A stretch of DNA of 64,000 nt from Clostridia bacterium (lineage in GTDB: Bacteria > Bacillota > Clostridia > Oscillospirales > Acutalibacteraceae): assembly GCA_017502085.1 (NCBI GenBank), contig JAFVVQ010000066.1:1-64000 (forward strand). Reading direction: 5' to 3'. Of this stretch, positions 6,412-60,346 are shown one piece after another. The translations under genes were made by a program, and so were the position numbers. The stretch's first letter is position 1; each line of letters opens with the position of its first letter. The notes under the pieces were generated by a model. That model was not told the DNA's origin. It saw nothing but the letters and a program-made list of their open reading frames with translations, and made no database searches.

Positions 6412-7649
6412 AGACGGTTACAGTTAGAGATTTAGGTCGTGTTGTAACAGGTCACACACCTCCTACCAAAAAGCGAGAATACTATGGCGATTTTTATCCT
6501 TTTGTGAAGCCTACAGATATGATAATAGGTAATAAGTATACATATCATACGGAAGAAGGATATTCAAAATTAGCCTATGAAAAATATAATACAAGTCTTA
6601 TACCTAAGGGTTCAACTTGTGTTGTTTGTATTGGAACATTAGGCGAAAAAATGACAATGGCACATTGTGATTTGTTTACAAATCAATCGGTTAATTCAAT
6701 TATACCTAATGATGAATATGACAATCACTATGTATATTATTTGTTAAAATACAATTTAGGCAAAGTAAAAGCTTTAAACAAAGGGACAGCTTCTGGCAGA
6801 GAATTTGTATCTAAAACAACCTTTTTAGATATGATGATTCTTGTGCATGAGGATAAAAAAACACAACATAAAATAGGGCAAATATTGTCAGCTTATGATG
6901 AACTTATTGAAAACAATCAGAAACAAATAAAATTACTTGAAGAAGCGGCACAGAGACTTTATAAAGAATGGTTTGTTGACCTTCGCTTTCCCGGACACGA
7001 AAATACGCCTATCACTGACGGCATCCCCGAAGGTTGGACATTGAAAACGGTTTCAGAATGTCTTGAAATGCATATTGGTGGAGGTTGGGGTAAAGAAACA
7101 CCAACAGGGAAAAATAGCATACCAGCAAAAGTTATTAGAGGCACCGATATAAATAATATCAAGTCTGGTGATTTTAGTGATGTTCCTTTGAGATATCATT
7201 CCGAAAATGATATAAAAACAAGAAGTCTTAAAAGCGGCGATATTATCTTTGAATTGTCGAATGGAAATATTAATAATATTGGTAGAAGTTTGTTGTTAGA
7301 CGATTTAATGTTAAAAAGATGTGGTCAAAACACAATTTGTGCAAGCTTTTGCAAATTGTTTAGGCCTTTAGATGAACAGCATTCAATCATTTTATATTTA
7401 GAAATTCAGGAAATGCAAGAAAGCGGTCGTATGCTTCCGTTTAAAAAACAAGGTTCTAATGGAATAAATAATTTTGCGTTTGATGACTTTCTTCAACATA
7501 AACTTATTGTTCCTAACACTGGTTTTAATATGTATCCATTTGTTAACATAATAAAACAAATATCAAATTTACAAAGTCAATTTTCATTATTAATTGATGC
7601 TCGTGATCGTTTGTTACCCAAACTCATGAGCGGTGAATTGGAGGTGTGA
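6408..7649 (+). CDS. hsdS: Type I restriction-modification specificity subunit S
   Basis: A 413-residue HsdS with the usual duplicated plan: target recognition domain 1 (about 1-155), a conserved helical spacer (KIGQILSAYDELIENN then KLLEEAAQRLYKEWFVDLRF, about 160-200), target recognition domain 2 (about 205-375), and a second conserved helix ending in RDRLLPKLMSGELEV. It sets the two half-sites of the methylated sequence. Both recognition domains are visibly AT-richer than the spacers, the usual sign of domain exchange. The start overlaps hsdM. The recognition sequence cannot be read from the protein. Confidence 0.93.
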   Translation: MKTVTVRDLGRVVTGHTPPTKKREYYGDFYPFVKPTDMIIGNKYTYHTEEGYSKLAYEKYNTSLIPKGSTCVVCIGTLGEKMTMAHCDLFTNQSVNSIIPNDEYDNHYVYYLLKYNLGKVKALNKGTASGREFVSKTTFLDMMILVHEDKKTQHKIGQILSAYDELIENNQKQIKLLEEAAQRLYKEWFVDLRFPGHENTPITDGIPEGWTLKTVSECLEMHIGGGWGKETPTGKNSIPAKVIRGTDINNIKSGDFSDVPLRYHSENDIKTRSLKSGDIIFELSNGNINNIGRSLLLDDLMLKRCGQNTICASFCKLFRPLDEQHSIILYLEIQEMQESGRMLPFKKQGSNGINNFAFDDFLQHKLIVPNTGFNMYPFVNIIKQISNLQSQFSLLIDARDRLLPKLMSGELEV

Positions 7650-52112: not shown

Positions 52113-53057
52113 TTACAGGTTGTTGAGAATTTTAAGAACGCAGGAGAGTTCTTCGGGTCTGAATTTTTCAACGGGTTTGTTATTTTCGACGCAATCCGCA
52201 AAGTAGATAATTTCGTTTGCATATGCATCGCTCTTGGGCAGATTGATGCTGCCCGTATCACCTTCGGCGGTCTGGGAGAGGTCGATTTTTTCATCGTTGC
52301 GAAGATAAATCATCATTTTACCGTTTTCGTTTGAAACGACAGCATCTTCAAACTGAAAACGGAATTCAGCGGTGAAGGGATAGCAGCTTGAATACCACGA
52401 TGCCTCGGAGTTGATTGAAAAATCACCGAAATCGTAGACAAGGCTGATGAAATCCTGGTCGGGAAGCTTTGAACGGTACTGATATGATACCTTGGGAAGA
52501 CCGAAAGCATAAACCATAAAGTCGAGGTCGTGAATGTGGAGATCAAAGGGCACGAGACCGCTTCTCTTTTCATCCATCATCCAGCCGTCCCAGCTCCACT
52601 TGGGGTAACCGCCGAGACGAATCATTGTGCCTGAAAGGAGTTTGCCGTATTTTTTGGAGTCATAAATTTCTTTGAGGAGTTCATATTCGGGCCAGAATCT
52701 CAGCACGTGAGCAACCATAAACTTGACGTTGTTTTTTTCTGCGGTTGAATAGATTCTTTCAACGTCTTCTTCTTTCAGAGAGATGGGCTTTTCGGTGAGC
52801 ACGTTGATGCCTTTTTCCATCGCCTTGACGGCAAAATCTGCGTGCAGATAGGTGGGCAGACAGATATCGAGTATATCAAGATCCTCGTTTGCGAGCATTT
52901 CATCGAAATCAGTGTAGCAACGTTTACCGCTGTATTTTTCCATTCTTTCGGGTCGGATGTCACAAAGCGCAACAAGTTCTGCATTCTCCATTTCTTCCCA
53001 GGCGGGGATGTGAGCGCCGCTGATACCGCCGACACCGACGAGTCCGATTTTAAGCAT
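52113..53057 (-). CDS. Gfo/Idh/MocA-family oxidoreductase
   Basis: A 314-residue NAD(P)-dependent dehydrogenase: Rossmann motif GLVGVGGISGAHIPAW, the LCDIRPER cofactor loop, DILDICLPTYLHADFAV, the family motif TEKPIS and a GGYPKWSWDGWMMD substrate-side segment. It probably oxidises or epimerises a sugar or inositol derivative, fitting the glycosidases around it. AGGAGG precedes ATG 53057; 17 extra codons upstream are not needed. Its upstream region contains the TTAAGA repeats at 53153-53222. Confidence 0.9.
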   Translation of the reverse strand: MLKIGLVGVGGISGAHIPAWEEMENAELVALCDIRPERMEKYSGKRCYTDFDEMLANEDLDILDICLPTYLHADFAVKAMEKGINVLTEKPISLKEEDVERIYSTAEKNNVKFMVAHVLRFWPEYELLKEIYDSKKYGKLLSGTMIRLGGYPKWSWDGWMMDEKRSGLVPFDLHIHDLDFMVYAFGLPKVSYQYRSKLPDQDFISLVYDFGDFSINSEASWYSSCYPFTAEFRFQFEDAVVSNENGKMMIYLRNDEKIDLSQTAEGDTGSINLPKSDAYANEIIYFADCVENNKPVEKFRPEELSCVLKILNNL

Positions 53058-53152
53058 AAATATAACCTCCTTTGGTTTTGACAAAATCATTTTACCACTT
53101 TGCAACAAAAAATCAAGGTTATTCGAAAATTTATCATAGTGTTACGAAGAAA

Positions 53153-53222
53153 TTAAGATTTTTCTAAGAATCTTAAGATTTTCAAAAGAAATCATTAAGA
53201 ATCTTAATCCTTCTTTAAGATT
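53153..53222 (-). promoter_or_regulatory. Four TTAAGA(TT) boxes at two-turn spacing
   Basis: TTAAGATT/TTAAGAAT boxes start at 53153, 53173, 53195 and 53215, that is 20, 22 and 20 bases apart, about two helical turns each. The second is part of the palindrome AATCTTAAGATT (53169-53180) and the third of ATTAAGAATCTTAAT (53194-53208). They lie upstream of the oxidoreductase gene and look like an operator for a cooperatively binding regulator. Confidence 0.5.
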
Positions 53223-53310
53223 AGATTAAAATGCTTGAAAGTGTCCGAGCTTTGCGGTAAAATTCGATTGCAGGGAGAAATAATTGCAGTTATTCGGAAG
53301 AAGAATAAAA

Positions 53311-53328
53311 GCCGCCTGATAAGGCGGC
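53311..53328 (-). terminator. Terminator after the XRE regulator
   Basis: A seven-base stem (53311-53317 with 53322-53328) followed on the minus strand by TTTTATTC. Confidence 0.8.
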
Positions 53329-53333
53329 AAAGG

Positions 53334-53672
53334 TTAAGTGTTTCTGTATTTTTCGATTTCTGTGATTATTCCAAAAAGAAGCTGTTGTTCATCTTCGCTT
53401 TTTGAGGCAAGGAGTTCATAGCATTCAAGCGGAATGTTTCTTCGGTTATTATCGGAATCACCGAGTTTTTCAAAAAGCTGCGACAAAGGAACATTCAGTG
53501 CTTTGGCGATTTTTTCAGTGCTTTCAAGAGTTGCGTTTTTCTCTCCGCGCTCAAGCTGGCCGATATATGTCGGATGGACGCCCGACATTTCTGCCAATTT
53601 TTCCTGACTCAAATCGAGTCTGATGCGGCAGCTTCTTATTCTCTGCCCCACGAATTTTGCAATTTCACTCAT
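53334..53672 (-). CDS. XRE-family transcriptional regulator
   Basis: A 112-residue regulator with an XRE helix-turn-helix at about 10-65 (RIRLDLSQEKLAEMSGVHPTYIGQLERGEKNAT) and a short acidic C-terminal helix pair (LASKSEDEQQLLFGIITEIEKY). It is divergent from the small-peptide cluster at 53892-58044, and the 220-base gap between them holds two inverted repeats, so it most likely controls its own promoter and that cluster; this is inferred. AAGGAGT precedes the ATG. Confidence 0.9.
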   Translation of the reverse strand: MSEIAKFVGQRIRSCRIRLDLSQEKLAEMSGVHPTYIGQLERGEKNATLESTEKIAKALNVPLSQLFEKLGDSDNNRRNIPLECYELLASKSEDEQQLLFGIITEIEKYRNT

Positions 53673-53690
53673 ATAATTACTCCTTTCAAC

Positions 53691-53799
53691 AATAGTCTAA
53701 AAGTACGGAAAATATTATTCCACAGACTATTGATATTTTTGCTCCTATAACATACACTATAAATATTGCTTGCGGCATGGTTGGTATTTATAGTGTGTG
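53691..53799. promoter_or_regulatory. Two inverted repeats in the XRE / peptide-cluster divergent region
   Basis: A perfect twelve-base inverted repeat, ACACTATAAATA (53754-53765) and TATTTATAGTGT (53785-53796), extends to fifteen bases with one mismatch. A second, AATAGTCT / AGACTATT (53691-53698, 53724-53731), lies nearer the XRE gene. Both are candidate operators for the XRE protein. Confidence 0.55.
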
Positions 53800-53891
53800 A
53801 AATGAGCAGATTGTTCTGAGGGGGGACTGCTTCGGGTAAAGAGAGAACATCTCTTTATATAGTATGGGATAAAAGAAAGGAAGGGTAAAGA

Positions 53892-54743
53892 ATGTATTGT
53901 TCCGTTTGCGGCAGAAAACTTCAGGAAGGCGAGGTATGTCTTTGCACGATTACGGAAGATATTTCCGAAAACCGTGATTCGGTTTCGTATGGCTCAGACC
54001 ATATTCAAGCTTCCGTTGAACAGACTGATAAGAAGGCAAAGATAAAATCACAGTGGAAAAAGCTGTTTATAAGTGTGGTTGTCAGCCTTATTTTTTGTCT
54101 GAGTTCAATTATAATACCCGAGGTTATCAAGGAACTTCGCAAAAGCAACGCACCTCATAATCCTGAGATCAACGTTCTTGAAGGCATTGAAGGTGATTTT
54201 ATTCTTGAATCTTCCGGTGCGGAGTATACAAAGGGTACGGTCAACGGCAACACCTATTCGAACCCCTGGGCAAATTTCAAAGTGAATTTTGACACCCGTT
54301 TTGAAGAAGGTAGCGAGGAAGATTATTACGATCACGAAAGCCTTCTCTATGACTGCGGAGCCTGTTTTATTGCCGATGACGACGGCGATGAGATTGCCAT
54401 CCTTTTCTATGATGCGGGCAACACAACCGTCACGGAATACGTGGAGGAAAGCTTTGAGGTCTGGCAGAATACCGCCGAGACTATGTTTGAAGAAACGTAT
54501 TCCGAAGATTTCATCAGCAAGATAACCTATCGACGTGATGCAAAAGAAGTTGAACTTGCGGGAGAAAAATACCTTGCCTCATTCCTTATCGCAGAAGTTG
54601 AAGGAGAGGAATTTATTACTTACTGCGATATCTGTGCCAAGAAAGACGGCAGAATTATCGATATCATTATTGCGGCAGATAACGTTGACGAATGCCTGAA
54701 AACAGCCCGTGCTTTTGAAATATGCAGTGGCTACGGCATTTGA
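53892..54743 (+). CDS. Zinc-ribbon, single-span membrane protein
   Basis: A 283-residue protein. Residues 2-17 form a zinc ribbon (CSVCGRKLQEGEVCLC); a cytoplasmic linker follows; residues about 57-77 are one membrane helix (KLFISVVVSLIFCLSSIIIP). The outer domain of about 200 residues starts with NPEINVLEGIEGDF and contains NPWANFKVNFDTRFEEGSEEDYY and alternating strands and helices. The ribbon-helix-sensor plan is common in Clostridia for envelope sensing. It begins a ten-gene same-strand cluster and ends 17 bases before the next, tiny gene. AAGGAAGGG precedes the ATG. The family has no name I know. Confidence 0.75.
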   Translation: MYCSVCGRKLQEGEVCLCTITEDISENRDSVSYGSDHIQASVEQTDKKAKIKSQWKKLFISVVVSLIFCLSSIIIPEVIKELRKSNAPHNPEINVLEGIEGDFILESSGAEYTKGTVNGNTYSNPWANFKVNFDTRFEEGSEEDYYDHESLLYDCGACFIADDDGDEIAILFYDAGNTTVTEYVEESFEVWQNTAETMFEETYSEDFISKITYRRDAKEVELAGEKYLASFLIAEVEGEEFITYCDICAKKDGRIIDIIIAADNVDECLKTARAFEICSGYGI

Positions 54744-54760
54744 AAGAAAGGAGAATTGCA

Positions 54761-54913
54761 ATGTTTTTCGGACCTTTTTTACCAATCGTTCCCGTTATGA
54801 TTCTGCTCGAATATTTCCCTGAATCAATCGGTGAGCCGATTCAGGCGGTTATTCTCGGGGCGGCATATAAGGTGGTTATGGCCGTCAGCGGAATTATCGC
54901 ATTTATATTCTGA
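54761..54913 (+). CDS. 50-residue helical-hairpin membrane peptide (peptide 1)
   Basis: Fifty residues: an N-terminal hydrophobic helix (FFGPFLPIVPVMILLEY), a proline turn FPESIGEPI, and a second hydrophobic helix (LGAAYKVVMAVSGIIAF). AAAGGAG is spaced correctly before the ATG, and a longer reading from 54722 would overlap the previous gene. The turn matches peptide 5 of the same cluster (57883), which also starts MFF and has LPDKISQPI. It probably sits in the membrane as a hairpin. No similarity to a known family was recognised. Confidence 0.65.
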   Translation: MFFGPFLPIVPVMILLEYFPESIGEPIQAVILGAAYKVVMAVSGIIAFIF

Positions 54914-54938
54914 TGTAGAATTAAAGGAGATGAAAACA

Positions 54939-55070
54939 ATGATAACTTTTGCACTGATGCACGTTGCTATGATACCTTTGGTGTATCTTTTGGAAGCTTT
55001 CCCGTTCCTAAAGCCGTTGATGGAAGCACCGCTGGAACTTCTGCTGAAGCTGGCGGAACTGGCAAAATGA
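54939..55070 (+). CDS. 43-residue membrane peptide (peptide 2)
   Basis: Forty-three residues: a hydrophobic helix (ITFALMHVAMIPLVYLLEA), a proline-rich turn (FPFLKPLMEAP) and an amphipathic leucine helix (LELLLKLAELAK). ATTAAAGGAG sits nine bases before the ATG at 54939. An alternative ATG nine bases upstream lies on the ribosome site itself. It lies 25 bases after peptide 1 and has the same helix-turn-helix plan. Function unknown. Confidence 0.6.
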   Translation: MITFALMHVAMIPLVYLLEAFPFLKPLMEAPLELLLKLAELAK

Positions 55071-55131
55071 TGATTTCAACAACATCAAATCTGACAGTAT
55101 AAAATGCAGTAAATAACAGGGAGGACAACAA

Positions 55132-56079
55132 ATGAAAACAACAAAAAAATTAATATCAATTATGCTTTGTGCGGTTTTGCTTTTCTCAACCGCAAGCGTA
55201 GCCTTTGCAGCAGAGTCTGACACAAAAGAAGCGCTCGAAAAAGACTTCGTATGTCACGACTATTACAGCGTTGAAACGGTTGTGGTAACCTACAACGAAA
55301 AGTATACCGAAATTGGTGAAGTGCCGTCTGTTACTATATATTCACGTGAAAGGGATTCCGAGGAAGTCAATGTAACAGAAGTCAGCAGTGACAGAATTCA
55401 TATGGAGATTTATGAGCATAACGGCAAAAGATATCCTCAGCTTTTTATTGATGTTGACTTTTGCTGGAAGGTGCTTGCTGTTGAAGTAGGCGCAGGTGCA
55501 TTTGTAACGGAAGACGGAGAAAAAAGTGCTGAGGTTGAAGTGCCGTATTCCCGAATAATACAATGCAACTTTGAGATGGAGTGCGAATGCACGACATATT
55601 ATTTTTGCGAAAACTATTTTAATTTGTCTAAAAGAAAAACTCATTATTATGCAATTGTCGGAATGCCTGTTAAAGTTGTGACTTCGTTTAAAGGCAACCA
55701 TGCGGATGCATGGCTTGAAAAAGCGAAGGTAACATATACGGTTAACGGCAGAACAGTTGAAATCAATTCGTATGAATTTGTTCCCGAAGAACCCGGTGAA
55801 TACATTGTTCAGATTAATATCGGTAATAAACTCAAGGATACTGTAAAGTTTAATGTCGGCAGTGAAAAAAGTGCATATTTTGACGGATTGGAGCTTACGG
55901 GAAAGCATTTACTGGCCGGTCCGCTTGAAGTTGTTTTCGGAATATTTGCCTTTTTCTTTGTTCCCGGATTCGGTACACTCGGCGGTCCTGTTTTTGTTGT
56001 TGATGGCGTGTTAAGTATACCGAACTTCTTTAAATCGCTGTTTAACGGACCGGAATATCACGATCATACTTTTGGCTGA
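55132..56079 (+). CDS. Exported protein with C-terminal hydrophobic hairpin
   Basis: A 315-residue exported protein: signal peptide KKLISIMLCAVLLFSTASVAFA, a 220-residue outer domain rich in strands and cysteines (CHDYYSVETVVVTYNEKYTE, CNFEMECECTTYYFCENYF, TYTVNGRTVEINSYEFVPEEPGEYIVQI), then a hydrophobic region (LAGPLEVVFGIFAFFFVPGFGTLGGPVFVVDG) and a tail NFFKSLFNGP. The Ig-like strand EPGEYIVQI suggests a beta-sandwich before the membrane part. GGGAGG precedes the ATG. The same plan, leader plus outer domain plus hydrophobic tail, recurs at 56822 and 57555. No family recognised. Confidence 0.75.
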   Translation: MKTTKKLISIMLCAVLLFSTASVAFAAESDTKEALEKDFVCHDYYSVETVVVTYNEKYTEIGEVPSVTIYSRERDSEEVNVTEVSSDRIHMEIYEHNGKRYPQLFIDVDFCWKVLAVEVGAGAFVTEDGEKSAEVEVPYSRIIQCNFEMECECTTYYFCENYFNLSKRKTHYYAIVGMPVKVVTSFKGNHADAWLEKAKVTYTVNGRTVEINSYEFVPEEPGEYIVQINIGNKLKDTVKFNVGSEKSAYFDGLELTGKHLLAGPLEVVFGIFAFFFVPGFGTLGGPVFVVDGVLSIPNFFKSLFNGPEYHDHTFG

Positions 56080-56122
56080 TAAAAAAGCAATGAATTGAAA
56101 TTACAAAACAATGAGGAAAAGT

Positions 56123-56725
56123 ATGAAAAAACTGAACAAAGTCTTATTGTTAATCACAATTCTTGTTGTCGTATTCAGCACCGTTTTTACGATAAAAACA
56201 GACGGGCGTTATATTATAAGAGCCGGTTTATATGTTGCAGGAGAGCTGGGTCTGTTCGCAACAGATTATTTTGTAAAAGATTTCAAAGAAAACCAAAGCG
56301 ATTTTGAACAGATTGCAAATCTGATTACGGACTATGGGAATTCATATGATTCTGCCGATGAATCCGAATCACGGTTTATTTACTTTACCCCCGAGCGTTA
56401 TTCTTCGTCAGGCAACATAATTTTCAAAGTAAAAAAAGATTCTTCTTCATCAAGTTCAGAAATATATTTTTCGGAAGAAGAAACAGAAGTGTTCAAAAGA
56501 ATAACAAAATGTTTCAAGGTGGAAGAAGCGGGATTTCATTCGTTCAGCTTTGACAAAAAAGAAAAAATGGTTTATTTTCATACTTCTGACGGCAGATACT
56601 CTCTTGTTTATTCCGCAGAAAACAAAAAACCGTATTATGTAAACGGAACTTATGAACAAGAATATGAGCAAGAGTATGTTACAGATAAAATATGCAAAAA
56701 TTGGTTTAACATTGCCTTGAAATAA
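56123..56725 (+). CDS. Membrane-anchored protein of unknown function
   Basis: A 200-residue protein with an N-terminal anchor (KKLNKVLLLITILVVVFSTVF) and no cleavage motif. Residues 30-60 form a mixed helix (RAGLYVAGELGLFATDYF); the outer part (FIYFTPERYSSSGNIIFKV, a serine run, SEEETEVFKRITKCF, KKEKMVYFHTSDGRYSLVYS) alternates strands and helices. The ATG at 56123 follows GAGGAAAA; an upstream ATG at 56111 is at the ribosome site. The stop TAA shares its last base with the ATG of the short peptide that follows. Confidence 0.7.
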   Translation: MKKLNKVLLLITILVVVFSTVFTIKTDGRYIIRAGLYVAGELGLFATDYFVKDFKENQSDFEQIANLITDYGNSYDSADESESRFIYFTPERYSSSGNIIFKVKKDSSSSSSEIYFSEEETEVFKRITKCFKVEEAGFHSFSFDKKEKMVYFHTSDGRYSLVYSAENKKPYYVNGTYEQEYEQEYVTDKICKNWFNIALK

Positions 56726-56907
56726 TGGCAATCAGAGAACCCGAGATTGGCAGAGCGATGTTTCAGCAATTGGTAGTGGATCAGATTGTTAATCTTTTTA
56801 CATAAAAGGGGATTTATTATTATGAAAATAAAGAGAATTCTTTCGTTTTTTATGTGCATCGCAATTATTCTTACGGCGCTGCCGTTATCGGTGTTTGCAG
56901 AGAATGA
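56722..56907 (+). repeat. Direct repeat, copy 1 (peptide end plus leader start)
   Basis: This 186-base segment matches 57455-57640 with about 12 differences (roughly 94% identity). It holds the end of a membrane-peptide gene, the gap and the signal-peptide code of the next gene. Confidence 0.9.
56725..56805 (+). CDS. 26-residue peptide, 5'-truncated copy of peptide 4 (peptide 3)
   Basis: ATG 56725 shares a base with the previous stop and opens 26 codons (MAIREPEIGRAMFQQLVVD then QIVNLFT). They equal residues 22-47 of the 47-residue peptide at 57395 with three changes. The first hydrophobic half and the ribosome site are missing, so it is either a translationally coupled short peptide or a remnant left by the duplication. 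Confidence 0.45.
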   Translation: MAIREPEIGRAMFQQLVVDQIVNLFT

Positions 56908-57382
56908 AGAGCCTTATGCAAAAATCAGATTCAGGAATCCCGAAAAGTATAACGTTGCTTTCGGTGAAACCGAAGAGATTTATCTCGACTACAATACGGG
57001 TGGCATTGAAATCCACAAAATCGAGTGGGAGGTTTCAAAAAAACTGCTTTGCAAAATCGAATATGTGACCGATGAATCAACGGGGCTTGTGACGGGTGCA
57101 AAATTAACGGGTAAAAACTTCGGCAGTCTCACTCTTACGGCAAGATTGCTTGACGAAAACGGAAACGAAATAATTTCGGATAAAAGGTCACTGTACGTTG
57201 TTGAATCCGAAAACAAAAACTCTGAAGAGAAATTCAAGATTTTTTTGAGGGATTCTTATCTTGTTTCGGCTATGGGAACAATGTATATTGTTATTCCATT
57301 TGTCGGTGCAGTTATTTTTTCACCTGTTCTTGTACCTTACTATGCATATCTGACTGTAAAAGCAATAATTCTCGGAGTATAA
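56822..57382 (+). CDS. Exported protein with Ig-like domain and C-terminal hairpin
   Basis: A 186-residue exported protein: signal peptide KRILSFFMCIAIILTALPLSVFA, an Ig-like domain (EEIYLDYNTGGIEIHKIEWEV, GLVTGAKLTGKNFGSLTLTARLLDENG) resembling bacterial Big domains, and a C-terminal hydrophobic hairpin (GTMYIVIPFVGAVIFSPVLVPYYAYL). Its leader and upstream region are duplicated at 57555. AAGGGG precedes the ATG at 56822. It probably shows the Ig domain outside the cell from the membrane. No family recognised beyond the Ig-like fold. Confidence 0.75.
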   Translation: MKIKRILSFFMCIAIILTALPLSVFAENEEPYAKIRFRNPEKYNVAFGETEEIYLDYNTGGIEIHKIEWEVSKKLLCKIEYVTDESTGLVTGAKLTGKNFGSLTLTARLLDENGNEIISDKRSLYVVESENKNSEEKFKIFLRDSYLVSAMGTMYIVIPFVGAVIFSPVLVPYYAYLTVKAIILGV

Positions 57383-57394
57383 TCGGAGGTGACG

Positions 57395-57538
57395 ATGATG
57401 CTGGGTCTTATGAAATCGCTTTTGATAATAAGTGAGGTGTTGATGATGCCGTTGATAATGGCAATCAGAGAACCCGAGCTTGGCGCAGCAATGTTTCAGC
57501 AATTGGTAGTGGATCAGATTGTTAATCTTTTTACATAA
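57395..57538 (+). CDS. 47-residue membrane peptide (peptide 4)
   Basis: Forty-seven residues: a hydrophobic, methionine-rich helix (MLGLMKSLLIISEVLMMPLIM), a turn AIREPELG, and an amphipathic helix (AAMFQQLVVDQIVNLF). CGGAGG lies seven bases before the ATG. The second half is duplicated as peptide 3. It has the same helix, charged proline turn, helix layout as peptides 1, 2 and 5. Not present in any family I know. Confidence 0.65.
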   Translation: MMLGLMKSLLIISEVLMMPLIMAIREPELGAAMFQQLVVDQIVNLFT

Positions 57539-57640
57539 AAGGGGATTTATTATAGTGAAAATAAAAAGAATTCTTTCGTTTTTTATGTGCATCGCAATTA
57601 TTCTTACGGCGTTGCCGTTATCGGCATATGCACAGAATGA
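57455..57640 (+). repeat. Direct repeat, copy 2
   Basis: Matches 56722-56907, offset 733 bases. Differences include ATG to GTG at the start of the downstream gene. Confidence 0.9.
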
Positions 57641-57866
57641 CGTTCAGACAGAAAAAACAAATCAGGTTATAAAATTTATTGATTTCGATGCTCTTAAGGA
57701 AAAGGCGGAGAACATTTTTGAAGAAGCGAGTTTTTTCGGCTATTGGGGTATATATTTCGGACTCGCCGCAGTGCTTGGAACTCTGGCATTGCCGTTCAGT
57801 CCGATCGCAGTGATAATTCATCAGATCAACAAAGCTGTTTCAGAAAATAAAAGTGCGGCTTCATAA
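57555..57866 (+). CDS. Short exported protein, paralogue lacking the Ig-like domain
   Basis: A 103-residue protein from GTG 57555, with the same leader as the gene at 56822 (KRILSFFMCIAIILTALPLS) and then only a short polar part (KTNQVIKFIDFDALKEKAEN) before the C-terminal hydrophobic hairpin (YWGIYFGLAAVLGTLALPFSPIAVIIH). The Ig-like domain of its paralogue is absent, so it may be a bare membrane partner. AAGGGG precedes the GTG. It follows peptide 4 by 16 bases. Confidence 0.7.
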   Translation: MKIKRILSFFMCIAIILTALPLSAYAQNDVQTEKTNQVIKFIDFDALKEKAENIFEEASFFGYWGIYFGLAAVLGTLALPFSPIAVIIHQINKAVSENKSAAS

Positions 57867-57882
57867 ATGAAGGAGGATAAAA

Positions 57883-58044
57883 ATGTTTTTTGCATATCTG
57901 ATTTATATGGGACCGTCGTTTCTGGTTTCGATTGTTGCGGATTTGATTTTACCCGATAAAATTTCGCAGCCGATATTTGATTTTTTCTATAACAATGCGA
58001 CCGTATTCTGGGATTTTGTTGATAAGATTTTTGGTGTCGCATAA
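57883..58044 (+). CDS. 53-residue membrane peptide (peptide 5)
   Basis: Fifty-three residues: a hydrophobic helix (FFAYLIYMGPSFLVSIVADLI), a turn LPDKISQPI, and a second aromatic-rich helix (FDFFYNNATVFWDFVDKIF). GAAGGAGG is spaced seven bases before the ATG. The MFF start and the P-[DE]-x-I-x-[QE]-P-I turn are shared with peptide 1, 3 kb upstream, which supports a real family. Last gene of the cluster, before a terminator. Confidence 0.7.
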   Translation: MFFAYLIYMGPSFLVSIVADLILPDKISQPIFDFFYNNATVFWDFVDKIFGVA

Positions 58045-58049
58045 AAATC

Positions 58050-58078
58050 GCCCCTGCCGCTTGTGCTTTGGCAGGGGC
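58050..58078. terminator. Bidirectional terminator
   Basis: A perfect nine-base stem (58050-58058 with 58070-58078), T tails on both strands, between the peptide cluster and the convergent GH92 gene. Confidence 0.9.
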
Positions 58079-58093
58079 ATTATTTTATCTTAT

Positions 58094-60346
58094 TCAGTTT
58101 GCAGCGGGTTTGTTGCTCATTCTGAAAACAAGTTCGCCGCCTTCCATAAGCTGCTCGTGGGTGACGTAGCAGCCGTCAAGTGCATTGCCGTTAAGGGTAA
58201 CGCTTTCAACGTAAACGTTCTTGTCGTTCTGATTGATTGCAGTTATCTTCAGCGTGTTGCCGTTTGAGAGAGTAACCTCTGCTCCGCTGAGATTAGGTGA
58301 GCCGAGCCAGTATTTATCGGTGCCTGCAAGGGGATAGAAGCCCATTGCCGAGAAAACGTACCACGCACTGAGAGTGCCGCCGTCGTCATTGCCGTCAAGA
58401 CCGTTGATATCGTTGCTGAAACGGTTTTCAAGAGTCCAGCGCACCCATTTCTGTGTCAGATCGGGTCTGCCTGCATTTGCAAAAAGATAAGGAGTGTGAA
58501 TATCGTGCTGATTTCCGACCCAGAAGCCGTGACCGGGGTCAAGTGCCGCTCTCGAAAGAGATGCATCCTTCATAAAGTCCTCAAGTTCCGTGACGAAGTA
58601 TTCGTCCGAGCCGAATAGTTCGATCATACCGTCAATATCCTGAAGAGCATTCCATCTCCACTGTCTTGCACTGCCTTCACAGTAAGCGTCGGCAAACTTT
58701 TTGATCATAACCGCATCGTAGAATGAGGTGATATAGGGGCTGAAATTCCATACGAATGAGCCGTCGGCATTTCTTGCCTGAAAATATTTTGTTTCGGGAT
58801 TGAAAACGTTTTTGTAGTACATAGCCTTTTTGCCGTAATATTCCGCATCCTCGGATTTGCCGAGTGCAAGAGCAAGGTTTGCAATTGCTCCGTCTTCCCA
58901 GGAATATTCAACGGTTTTGGCAACCGTTCTTCTGACACCTTCTGCATCGGCGGGGATATAGCCGTATTCGTTATAAAGTTCAACCCAGCCTCTGCCCGAT
59001 TTATTCGTTGCGTTTTCGGAAGAATATTTCATTGCTTCATATGCCGATTCAACGTCGAAATCGGTTATGCCCTTGAGATAGCTTTCGGTGACGACGATGT
59101 TTGCGTTATCGCCGAACATTGAACCCGAGTAGCCTGCGCCCTGCGGCCATCTGGGAAGAACACCTGCACCCTGATCAGCCATTGCAACAAGGCTGTTGAG
59201 ACAGTCGAGCTGAATATCCTGTCTGATAAGGGTATAAAGCGGATGGGTTGTGCGGCAGGTATCCCAGAGCGACATATCCGTTCTGTAAGTATAACCCTCG
59301 GCAATATGAACCTTTTTGTCGAAGCCGAGATATTCGCCGTTGACGTCGGTGAAATCGGTGGGCATTATCATACTGTGATAGAGTGCAGTGTAGAAATTTG
59401 TTTTGATTTCATTATTATCGGAGTTGATTCTGATAACCGAAAGAGCATCCTCCCAATCGGCGGCGGCGTTCTTTCTGACGCCGTCAAAATCAAGACCTTC
59501 CGTTTCTGATTTGAGGTTGAGAAGTGCGTTTTCTTCGCTGACATAGCTGATACCGACCTTGATTTCGACATTGCTGTTGTTGAGAGAGCCAAAGTTCAGG
59601 TCAATACCGCCATCGGTAATTTCATATGATTTGACGGGTTTGCTGGCGACAGCCGCAAAGTATGCGGGGAGACCGTCGTATCTGCTCGCGAAATTACCCC
59701 AAAGAAGGCATCCGCCCGAGATTATGCCGTTTTCTTTGTTGTATTTTGCATAAGCATTCTGCGACTTGCGGTTACCCGCTGCACTTGTTGCGTCGATATA
59801 AAGATGTGCATCCTCGTTTGTGAAAAAAGTGTAACGGTGAATGCCTGTGTGAATATCGGCGGTCATTTCAGCAAGACAAGCGACCGAAGGCAGATAAACT
59901 GCATAATAACCCGCAGAAGCCTCTTCCATCGAGTGGGAATAGGGCATAATCTTTGCTCCGTTGTTGCCGATGGAGGGGGTGATTCTGAAGTTGCTGTAAT
60001 CCTCCGAGCCTGTTCCCGAAAGTCTGGAGTGGCTGAATCCCTTGATGTGACCGTGTTCATAGTAATAATCCGAGGTGTTGGTCTTTACGAGGTAAGTTCC
60101 TCCGAGAAAGCAGGTGTCGGGACCAAGTCTGACCGAACCGAAAGGGACCGTTGCGGCGGGACTGAGCATACCGCAGGTCCAGGGAATACCGCCCGTACCG
60201 ATGAAGGGATCAACGTACTGACCGTATTCGCCCTCGGGGATTTCAGGCATTTCGATTTTTTTCACAAGCACTCCGCCGAAAATTCCTGCAAAAAGTGTTT
60301 CGATGGCAACGAAAACCGAAACGAATGCTCTGATGATTTGCAACAT
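58094..60346 (-). CDS. GH92 alpha-mannosidase, membrane-anchored
   Basis: A 750-residue GH92 enzyme. A hydrophobic N-terminus (MLQIIRAFVSVFVAIETLF then AGIFGGVLV) should anchor it outside the cell. The beta-sandwich domain starts at VDPFIGTGG and has GHIKGFSHSRLSGTG; the (alpha/alpha)6 domain has LWDTCRTTHPLYTL, GNQHDIHTPYLFANAG and the family motif GNDDGGTLSAWYVFSAMGFYPL. GH92 enzymes are calcium-dependent exo-mannosidases acting on high-mannose N-glycans or yeast mannan. The start at 60346 follows TTGGAG. A single gene in a locus of other glycan enzymes. Confidence 0.93.
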   Translation of the reverse strand: MLQIIRAFVSVFVAIETLFAGIFGGVLVKKIEMPEIPEGEYGQYVDPFIGTGGIPWTCGMLSPAATVPFGSVRLGPDTCFLGGTYLVKTNTSDYYYEHGHIKGFSHSRLSGTGSEDYSNFRITPSIGNNGAKIMPYSHSMEEASAGYYAVYLPSVACLAEMTADIHTGIHRYTFFTNEDAHLYIDATSAAGNRKSQNAYAKYNKENGIISGGCLLWGNFASRYDGLPAYFAAVASKPVKSYEITDGGIDLNFGSLNNSNVEIKVGISYVSEENALLNLKSETEGLDFDGVRKNAAADWEDALSVIRINSDNNEIKTNFYTALYHSMIMPTDFTDVNGEYLGFDKKVHIAEGYTYRTDMSLWDTCRTTHPLYTLIRQDIQLDCLNSLVAMADQGAGVLPRWPQGAGYSGSMFGDNANIVVTESYLKGITDFDVESAYEAMKYSSENATNKSGRGWVELYNEYGYIPADAEGVRRTVAKTVEYSWEDGAIANLALALGKSEDAEYYGKKAMYYKNVFNPETKYFQARNADGSFVWNFSPYITSFYDAVMIKKFADAYCEGSARQWRWNALQDIDGMIELFGSDEYFVTELEDFMKDASLSRAALDPGHGFWVGNQHDIHTPYLFANAGRPDLTQKWVRWTLENRFSNDINGLDGNDDGGTLSAWYVFSAMGFYPLAGTDKYWLGSPNLSGAEVTLSNGNTLKITAINQNDKNVYVESVTLNGNALDGCYVTHEQLMEGGELVFRMSNKPAAN

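What the first reader, a model, noticed from the sequence alone, without database searches (positions are those of the whole stretch)
53892..58044. Ten-gene cluster alternating tiny membrane peptides with exported anchored proteins
Seen: peptides of 50, 43, 26, 47 and 53 residues (54761, 54939, 56725, 57395, 57883), nearly all with their own strong ribosome sites, are interleaved with a zinc-ribbon membrane protein and four exported or anchored proteins, three of which end in a hydrophobic hairpin. All genes are on one strand between a divergent XRE regulator and a terminator. Standard annotation would drop most of the peptides. I infer that the peptides partner the hydrophobic tails in the membrane, as an envelope stress, secretion or toxin/immunity-like system. 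I know of no described system with this layout.
Basis: partly seen in the sequence, partly recalled or inferred. Interest (0 to 1): 0.78.

Follow-up and report, generated by a model that had tools for sequence, protein, structure and literature searches.

The report
Tiny membrane peptides beside surface proteins
A bacterium related to Clostridia of the ruminant gut carries a run of very small, greasy proteins encoded between genes for exported proteins with greasy tails; related species keep the same tiny genes and selection preserves them, so they look real, but what they do is not known.

Summary
The cluster is real. Four of the five tiny ORFs (pepA 50 aa, pepB 43, pepC 46-47, pepD 53) look like genuine genes: each recurs in at least one other species of the genus, with dN/dS 0.05-0.35. 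The fifth, the 26-mer at 56725, is a truncated duplicate of pepC without its own ribosome site. pepA occurs in 7 of 45 genus genomes, the same 7 that hold a close P4 homologue, in the same loci. In nine cluster loci hydrophobic tiny ORFs are about 38 times denser per intergenic kb than elsewhere; other tiny ORFs are not enriched. Partners are exported proteins (BspA-type LRR, or no known domain) with C-terminal hydrophobic tails; 14 of 18 directly neighbour a peptide gene. One relative's 40-aa peptide is homologous to the P4-type tail; 37 others tested are not clearly so. Best reading, unproven: small membrane subunits that assemble with the tailed proteins. The locus is accessory: one relative shows a deletion scar with pepD left intact. 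Leaderless bacteriocins fail on charge and hydrophobicity; leader-peptide control does not fit peptides that end operons.

The parts
53334..53672 (-). divergent XRE (HTH_3) regulator, 112 aa; neighbour, probably not part of the conserved unit
   Evidence: Pfam HTH_3 3.8e-16; absent beside the syntenic clusters in G031 and G023
53892..54743 (+). P1: zinc-ribbon-like Cys pairs at the N-terminus, one hydrophobic segment, further domain, 283 aa
   Evidence: in 44 other genus genomes only two weak matches, E 4.2e-5 and 3.6e-4
54761..54913 (+). pepA, 50-aa hydrophobic peptide
   Evidence: aligned with 8 others; 7 of 45 genus genomes; dN/dS about 0.10-0.35 in 4 pairs
54939..55070 (+). pepB, 43-aa hydrophobic peptide
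   Evidence: 5 of 45 genus genomes at E<1e-11, three more only weakly; dN/dS 0.10-0.35 in 3 pairs
55132..56079 (+). P2: signal peptide (by reading), ectodomain, C-terminal hydrophobic tail, 315 aa
   Evidence: one relative among 44, in G021, 75% identity, with a pepB-like peptide just upstream
56111..56725 (+). P3: N-terminally anchored protein (by reading), 200-204 aa
   Evidence: no confident family match; relatives not searched
56725..56805 (+). 26-aa ORF: truncated duplicate of the 3' half of pepC, no own ribosome site
   Evidence: 186-nt 94% repeat; 26-codon comparison with pepC, 2 residues differ
56722..56907 (+). first copy of the duplicated module (pepC end + ribosome site + signal-peptide start)
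56822..57382 (+). P4: signal peptide (by reading), compact ectodomain, C-terminal hydrophobic tail, 186 aa
   Evidence: 6 relatives in the genus at 29-62% identity; no Pfam family above cut-off, none in solved structures
57395..57538 (+). pepC, 46-47-aa hydrophobic peptide
   Evidence: 73% identical copy directly upstream of the P4 homologue in G020; dN/dS 0.27 in 1 pair
57455..57640 (+). second copy of the duplicated module
57555..57866 (+). P5: signal peptide + short linker + membrane tail, 103 aa, GTG start
   Evidence: tail weakly like P4-type tails (8.1 bits, 0 of 80 TM decoys, 2 of 2000 shuffles)
57883..58044 (+). pepD, 53-aa hydrophobic peptide, last gene; distant pepA relative
   Evidence: matches the pepA HMM at 10.2 bits, 0 of 1620 shuffles; 52 of 53 aa identical in G030
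58050..58078 (+). terminator-like hairpin
   Evidence: -22.7 kcal/mol, z -4.3; not listed by the automatic terminator scan

Best explanation
The cluster encodes envelope proteins anchored by hydrophobic C-terminal tails, plus a set of tiny integral-membrane peptides that act as their small membrane subunits. Exported P2, P4 and P5 cross by Sec, keep their ectodomain outside (an LRR in some relatives) and stay in the membrane by the tail. The peptides insert directly and pack with these tails, so that a locus builds a mixed membrane complex displaying variable ectodomains, most likely for surface binding or sensing. Shown: the peptides are selected genes, co-localised and co-inherited with the tailed proteins; a tail-like free peptide and a signal-peptide-plus-tail protein (P5) exist. 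Inferred: signal peptides and membrane location (from sequence only), direct packing, a shared complex, and the binding or sensing role.
For: Purifying selection on the peptides: pepA dN/dS about 0.10-0.35 over 4 pairs, pepB 0.10-0.35 over 3, pepC 0.27 over 1, two peptides of relatives 0.22 and 0.27, pepD dN 0.008 and dS 0.17, a G031/G023 50-mer 0.14/0.85. pepA and close P4 homologues (E below 1e-15) are in the same 7 of 45 genus genomes, on the same contigs and close together. In the eight pepA clusters 14 of 18 tailed exported genes have a peptide gene as direct neighbour (my reading). pepC adjoins P4 in G020; a pepB-like peptide adjoins P2 in G021, a different gene context. The tail HMM hits the G011 40-mer at 19.7 bits against a best decoy of 13.1 (0 of 1520 shuffles, 0 of 80 TM segments), and still at 18.5 against 10.9 without G011's own tails. 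P5 is essentially signal peptide plus tail.
Against: Only 1 of 38 peptides is clearly tail-like; the next, a G031 35-mer (6.9 bits), is reached by 10 of 1520 shuffles. 4 of 18 tailed genes have no peptide neighbour. In G030 pepD survives with no exported gene in the piece of the locus that is held. Genus members G009, G017 and G044 have tailed exported proteins with few or no peptides. Promoter-like sites are at the chance level. Co-occurrence is partly explained by linkage and shared ancestry.
Confidence: 0.4

Rival explanations
1. The peptides are membrane-active effectors (bacteriocin-like or modulin-like) made without a leader, and the tailed exported proteins are immunity, receptor or display proteins.
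For: Tandem hydrophobic peptides without signal peptides, in variable numbers; the locus is accessory and exchanged between lineages.
Against: Of 38 peptides 31 are net negative, 3 neutral, 4 positive, whereas leaderless bacteriocins are net cationic and less hydrophobic than circular ones (passages of PMC6131525). I saw no transporter among the genes called inside the clusters. pepA is conserved instead of diversifying.
Confidence: 0.2
2. The small ORFs are regulatory leader peptides whose translation or membrane insertion controls the downstream exported gene.
For: Several peptides lie directly upstream of an exported gene: pepB-P2 and pepC-P5 in the window, pepC-P4 in G020, pepA-P4 in G003 and G018.
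Against: Peptides also end the runs: pepD before the hairpin, and the last three of G031. Up to five follow in a row, each with its own ribosome site. In pepA 8 of 11 invariant residues lie in the first 11 positions, not at the C-terminus as I recall for arrest peptides. No Rfam match in 52500-58500 at E up to 0.5.
Confidence: 0.1
3. Some tiny ORFs are remnants: 3' ends or duplicates of decayed genes without function.
For: The 26-mer is a truncated copy; the G011 40-mer could be the surviving tail of a P4-like gene; G030 shows how deletions leave pieces.
Against: pepA, pepB, pepC, pepD and three peptides of relatives show synonymous-biased change and keep ribosome sites.
Confidence: 0.1
4. The peptides are independent small membrane proteins (for example modulators of the bilayer or of housekeeping complexes) that only share the locus with the exported proteins.
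For: pepD stands without the exported genes in G030; most peptides have no tail homology; nothing shows contact.
Against: The shared distribution of pepA and close P4 homologues and repeated direct adjacency in different contexts.
Confidence: 0.2

Closest known systems
Small integral-membrane subunits of larger complexes (CydX, AcrZ type)
   Same: Very short, hydrophobic, encoded beside larger membrane proteins (search listing with starts of abstracts; otherwise recalled)
   Different: Here many unlike peptides per locus, tandem arrays, neighbours are exported proteins instead of enzymes or pumps; the only match is a sub-threshold AcrZ hit of pepC (E 0.027, 14.5 bits against a cut-off of 26.2)
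Leaderless (multi-peptide) bacteriocins such as aureocin A53, garvicin KS
   Same: Small peptides without leader, sometimes 3-4 together (passages of PMC6131525; listing)
   Different: Ours are mostly acidic and strongly hydrophobic, and I saw no transporter in the clusters
BspA-type LRR_5 surface proteins
   Same: Three partner proteins in relatives carry LRR_5 above the Pfam cut-off
   Different: Hydrophobic C-terminal ends and tiny peptide genes beside them; the window's own P2, P4 and P5 have no LRR match
Phenol-soluble modulins (beta type)
   Same: About 44 aa, acidic, leaderless (recalled)
   Different: No Pfam match of pepA-pepD to that family; 30 of 38 of our peptides reach a mean hydropathy of 1.6 over 19 residues

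Membership tests
Leaderless bacteriocins | net cationic peptides of low hydrophobicity | tested here: not met
   31 of 38 negative, mean -1.76; the four window peptides average hydropathy 0.95-1.52; the two Table 2 entries seen in PMC6131525 have +4 and +8 and -0.359 and -0.08
Leaderless bacteriocins | dedicated transporter and immunity genes (recalled) | tested here: inconclusive
   no transporter among genes called in the 8 clusters, by reading and by the family scans of some of them; the exported proteins could still be immunity proteins
Circular bacteriocins (group ii, hydrophobic) | long leader before the core peptide, and an ABC transporter gene in the cluster | tested here: not met
   the 38 peptides are 32-58 aa in total and no such gene was seen; features from passages of PMC6131525
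Phenol-soluble modulins | Pfam family match | tested here: not met
   no hit to that family up to E 1 for pepA-pepD
Phenol-soluble modulins | leaderless secretion by a dedicated transporter (recalled) | not testable with these tools
   needs culture; no transporter seen in the window cluster
Small membrane subunits of larger complexes | hydrophobic peptide under selection | tested here: met
   membrane location itself not tested
Small membrane subunits of larger complexes | gene linkage with a membrane-anchored partner across species | tested here: met
Small membrane subunits of larger complexes | physical association with the partner | not testable with these tools
Known defence systems (PADLOC) | match to a PADLOC model | tested here: not met
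   9 window proteins and one from G031 scanned; only weak hits, best E 0.0042
Phage protein families (PHROGs) | match to a PHROG | tested here: not met
   same 10 proteins; best E 0.0028, P3 to a family of unknown function; none for the four peptides

The most novel reading that the evidence does not exclude
A lineage-specific modular envelope system of Clostridia related to ruminant hindgut species, in which one membrane module exists in three forms (tail of a surface protein, signal-peptide-plus-tail protein, free peptide) and arrays of tiny peptides combine with interchangeable ectodomains into surface complexes, shuffled between strains by recombination at a shared site.
Probability: 0.22. 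Interest if true: 0.8.

Novelty: new variant of a known kind. Interest (0 to 1): 0.56.

Why it matters
Three families of very small hydrophobic proteins in the window (pepA/pepD, pepB, pepC), and more in its relatives, sit among genes for exported tailed proteins of bacteria known here only from metagenome assemblies. The window's four peptides gave no match above a curated cut-off in Pfam or NCBIfam and only weak or no hits in PADLOC and PHROGs; pepA/pepD gave none among solved structures. If the peptides are subunits of surface complexes, descriptions of such envelopes that leave out very short genes miss a whole layer. The adjacency gives concrete pairs to test (pepC with P4, pepB with P2, pepA with P4), and G030 offers a natural deletion for comparison.

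Tried and rejected
Rejected: chance ORFs; the XRE gene as a conserved part; leaderless bacteriocin membership. A phage or plasmid link was not found as far as searched (pepA in viral contigs and plasmids, P4 in phages: no match). General homology of the peptides to the tails was tested and not found: only the G011 40-mer stands out; the next best, a G031 35-mer, exceeds all 80 TM decoys but is reached by 10 of 1520 shuffles. Weak pepA-like hits in G156, G251 and G245 looked spurious when read. The four weak hits of the order search (G551 E 1.7e-4, G067, G167, G486) were not followed up, so a distant relative there is not excluded. A 432-494-aa protein in four clusters looked like an M28-type peptidase by eye but gave no convincing match (G018 copy; G031 copy), so I claim no function for it. 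pepF was misaligned in three attempts and its numbers are not used.

Selections to know: the 38 peptides are those with ATG or GTG start, a ribosome-site match of at least 4 and hydropathy above 0.3 inside spans that I chose; TTG-start ORFs were dropped except two that I added back, and G020 pepC was added because it overlaps a longer ORF that I take as spurious. One G023 peptide just outside my span (L039 2229-2384) counts as 'outside' and is not among the 38. The 80 TM decoys come from the loci in hand. The grouping into pepE-pepH was done by eye. The close-P4 threshold (E below 1e-15) was chosen after seeing the table; at E 0.01 the tally is 16 of 45. The 18 tailed genes leave out P1, P3, the G020 201-aa protein and the 432-494-aa protein, and also an exported G264 protein directly upstream of its pepA (L059 6959-7960), which ends in a TM segment. 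Signal peptides and tails were judged by reading; no predictor was run.

Papers: search listings with starts of abstracts and found passages of PMC6131525 and PMC11364881. That the layout is not described rests on those seven searches alone.
Full report
What is there. On the + strand, 53892-58044, ten ORFs follow one another: P1, pepA, pepB, P2, P3, a 26-aa ORF, P4, pepC, P5, pepD. A divergent XRE gene lies upstream and a stable hairpin downstream. The automatic scan did not list that hairpin as a terminator, and promoter-like sites are at the chance level, so a single operon is inferred from spacing and strand. Four peptides have strong ribosome sites. The 26-mer has none: it is the end of pepC, carried in a 186-nt, 94% identical duplication that also covers the ribosome site and signal-peptide start shared by P4 and P5. 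In the 64-kb window all four intergenic hydrophobic tiny ORFs with a good ribosome site are in this cluster.

Are the peptides genes? The evidence says yes for pepA-pepD. pepA aligns with eight other copies, with 11 invariant positions. Pairwise dN/dS is about 0.10-0.35 for pepA (4 pairs) and pepB (3 pairs), 0.27 for pepC (1 pair), and 0.22 and 0.27 for two peptides of relatives. pepD in G030 differs by one residue in 53 (dN 0.008, dS 0.17). A further peptide, known only from relatives, gives 0.14/0.85. pepD is a distant relative of pepA (10.2 bits, 0 of 1620 shuffles). These tests rest on few pairs.

Where they occur. Of 45 genomes of the genus (own included), 7 have pepA, 5 have pepB at E below 1e-11 and 3 more only weak matches, 2 have pepC, and 2 have pepD, with a third at E 0.09. 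P4 has close homologues (E below 1e-15) in 7 genomes, the same 7 as pepA and on the same contigs; 9 further genomes have weak P4 matches (E 7.5e-8 to 0.004) and no pepA. Under independence the agreement has a probability of 2.2e-8, but the genes are linked and the genomes related, so this measures co-inheritance of a locus. In the family search (398 genomes, drawn from a larger group) one other genus, G264, has a clear pepA. In the order search (394 genomes, drawn likewise) no clear new one appeared; four weak hits were not followed up. A pattern-based scan of the GTDB species contigs confirmed 7 loci. Their titles say Clostridia or Oscillospiraceae MAGs; five name goat, sheep, roe deer or water deer rectum or colon, the two SIG titles name no source. 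Plasmids and viral contigs gave no pepA relative, phages no P4 relative.

Cluster anatomy in relatives. G031 has ten peptides around three tailed exported proteins (184, 278, 340 aa); G023, G011, G020, G003, G018 and G264 have smaller or differently composed sets. Of 18 tailed exported genes in the eight pepA clusters, 14 have a peptide gene as direct neighbour (my reading of those calls); the other four (G020 362 aa, G003 342, G018 315, G264 556) do not. P2's only relative found, in G021, lies in another context and again follows a pepB-like peptide. LRR_5 is above the Pfam cut-off in three partners of relatives. Counted over 22 loci, hydrophobic tiny ORFs reach 3.46 per kb of intergenic DNA inside nine cluster loci and 0.09 outside, non-hydrophobic ones 0.35 and 0.41. 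Genus members G009, G017 and G044 have tailed exported proteins with few or no peptides.

Tails and peptides. A profile of eight P4-type tails, searched against 38 peptides, finds one clear match, the G011 40-mer (19.7 bits; best of 1520 shuffled peptides 13.1; best of 80 other TM segments 6.4). The match holds without G011's own tails (18.5 against a best decoy of 10.9). P5 of the window is signal peptide plus a tail weakly like that profile (8.1 bits; 2 of 2000 shuffles). So the same membrane element seems to exist as protein tail, as exported tail-only protein and as free peptide, but this is one clear and one weak case. For the other peptides no clear link was found. The G011 40-mer could also be the remnant of a decayed gene.

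Mobility. The window, G018 and G023 clusters lie between a dehydrogenase gene (Gfo/Idh type by recall) and the gene at window 58094 (GH92-like by recall); G031 shares the first neighbour. In G030 the same place shows a deletion: the sequence runs from the position of window 53279 to that of 57800 over a short match, leaving the last 18 codons of P5 and an intact pepD. pepD plus that P5 remnant has 9 of 71 third positions changed, against 219 of 654 in the flanking genes (Fisher p 2e-4), so the piece was shared between the lineages more recently than its flanks. I read this as an accessory locus exchanged by recombination. In eight other regions read beside the same dehydrogenase gene (G003, G004, G011, G012, G013, G020, G021, G025) no cluster gene stands next to it; one further G030 piece was too short to tell, and G002, G033 and G036 were not fetched.

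How it may work. I favour small membrane subunits that assemble with the tails of exported surface proteins (confidence 0.4). Selection, linkage and shared distribution are shown; membrane location, contact, a common complex and the binding or sensing role are inferred. Independent small membrane proteins and leaderless effectors (0.2 each), leader peptides and remnants (0.1 each) remain. Leaderless bacteriocins fail on charge and hydrophobicity, and no transporter was seen in the clusters. Leader peptides do not explain the peptides that close the runs or the long runs themselves. Structure prediction, which could have tested topology, was switched off.

Novelty. The four window peptides gave no match above a curated cut-off in Pfam or NCBIfam and only weak or no hits in PADLOC and PHROGs; pepA/pepD gave none in solved structures. 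Seven literature searches, seen as listings, showed no description of this layout. Because small membrane subunits beside larger proteins are a known kind, I call it a new variant.

Noticed in passing
G030:C145 (L096), junction near 1393-1409 of the reverse complement; window 53279 and 57800: Natural deletion scar of the cluster with short homology at the join, leaving pepD intact
   Followed up: yes
L036:6838-8265, L038:6327-7811, L039:3982-5466, L037:1746-3044: A 432-494-aa protein without convincing family match (M28-peptidase-like by eye only) lies inside four of the eight clusters on the same strand
   Followed up: partly
L041:10782-10934 and L057:12841-12990: Gly/Cys-rich tiny ORFs (49-50 aa) with a hydrophobic stretch, beside similar dehydrogenase-type genes in G020 and G011
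   Followed up: no
L041:6501-6587 and 6634-6720: Two nearly identical 28-aa hydrophobic ORFs in tandem, each with a ribosome site, upstream of the G020 cluster
   Followed up: no
L040:7904-8816: The G011 cluster has a run of further tiny hydrophobic ORFs, some with TTG starts and weak ribosome sites; possibly partly decayed
   Followed up: partly
L004:7841-7976: The pepB-like peptide of G021 seems to lack an ATG at the homologous start (CTG there) although the frame is conserved
   Followed up: partly
L059:6959-7960: An exported 333-aa protein ending in a TM segment and basic residues lies directly upstream of pepA in G264; it was left out of the tailed-gene count
   Followed up: no
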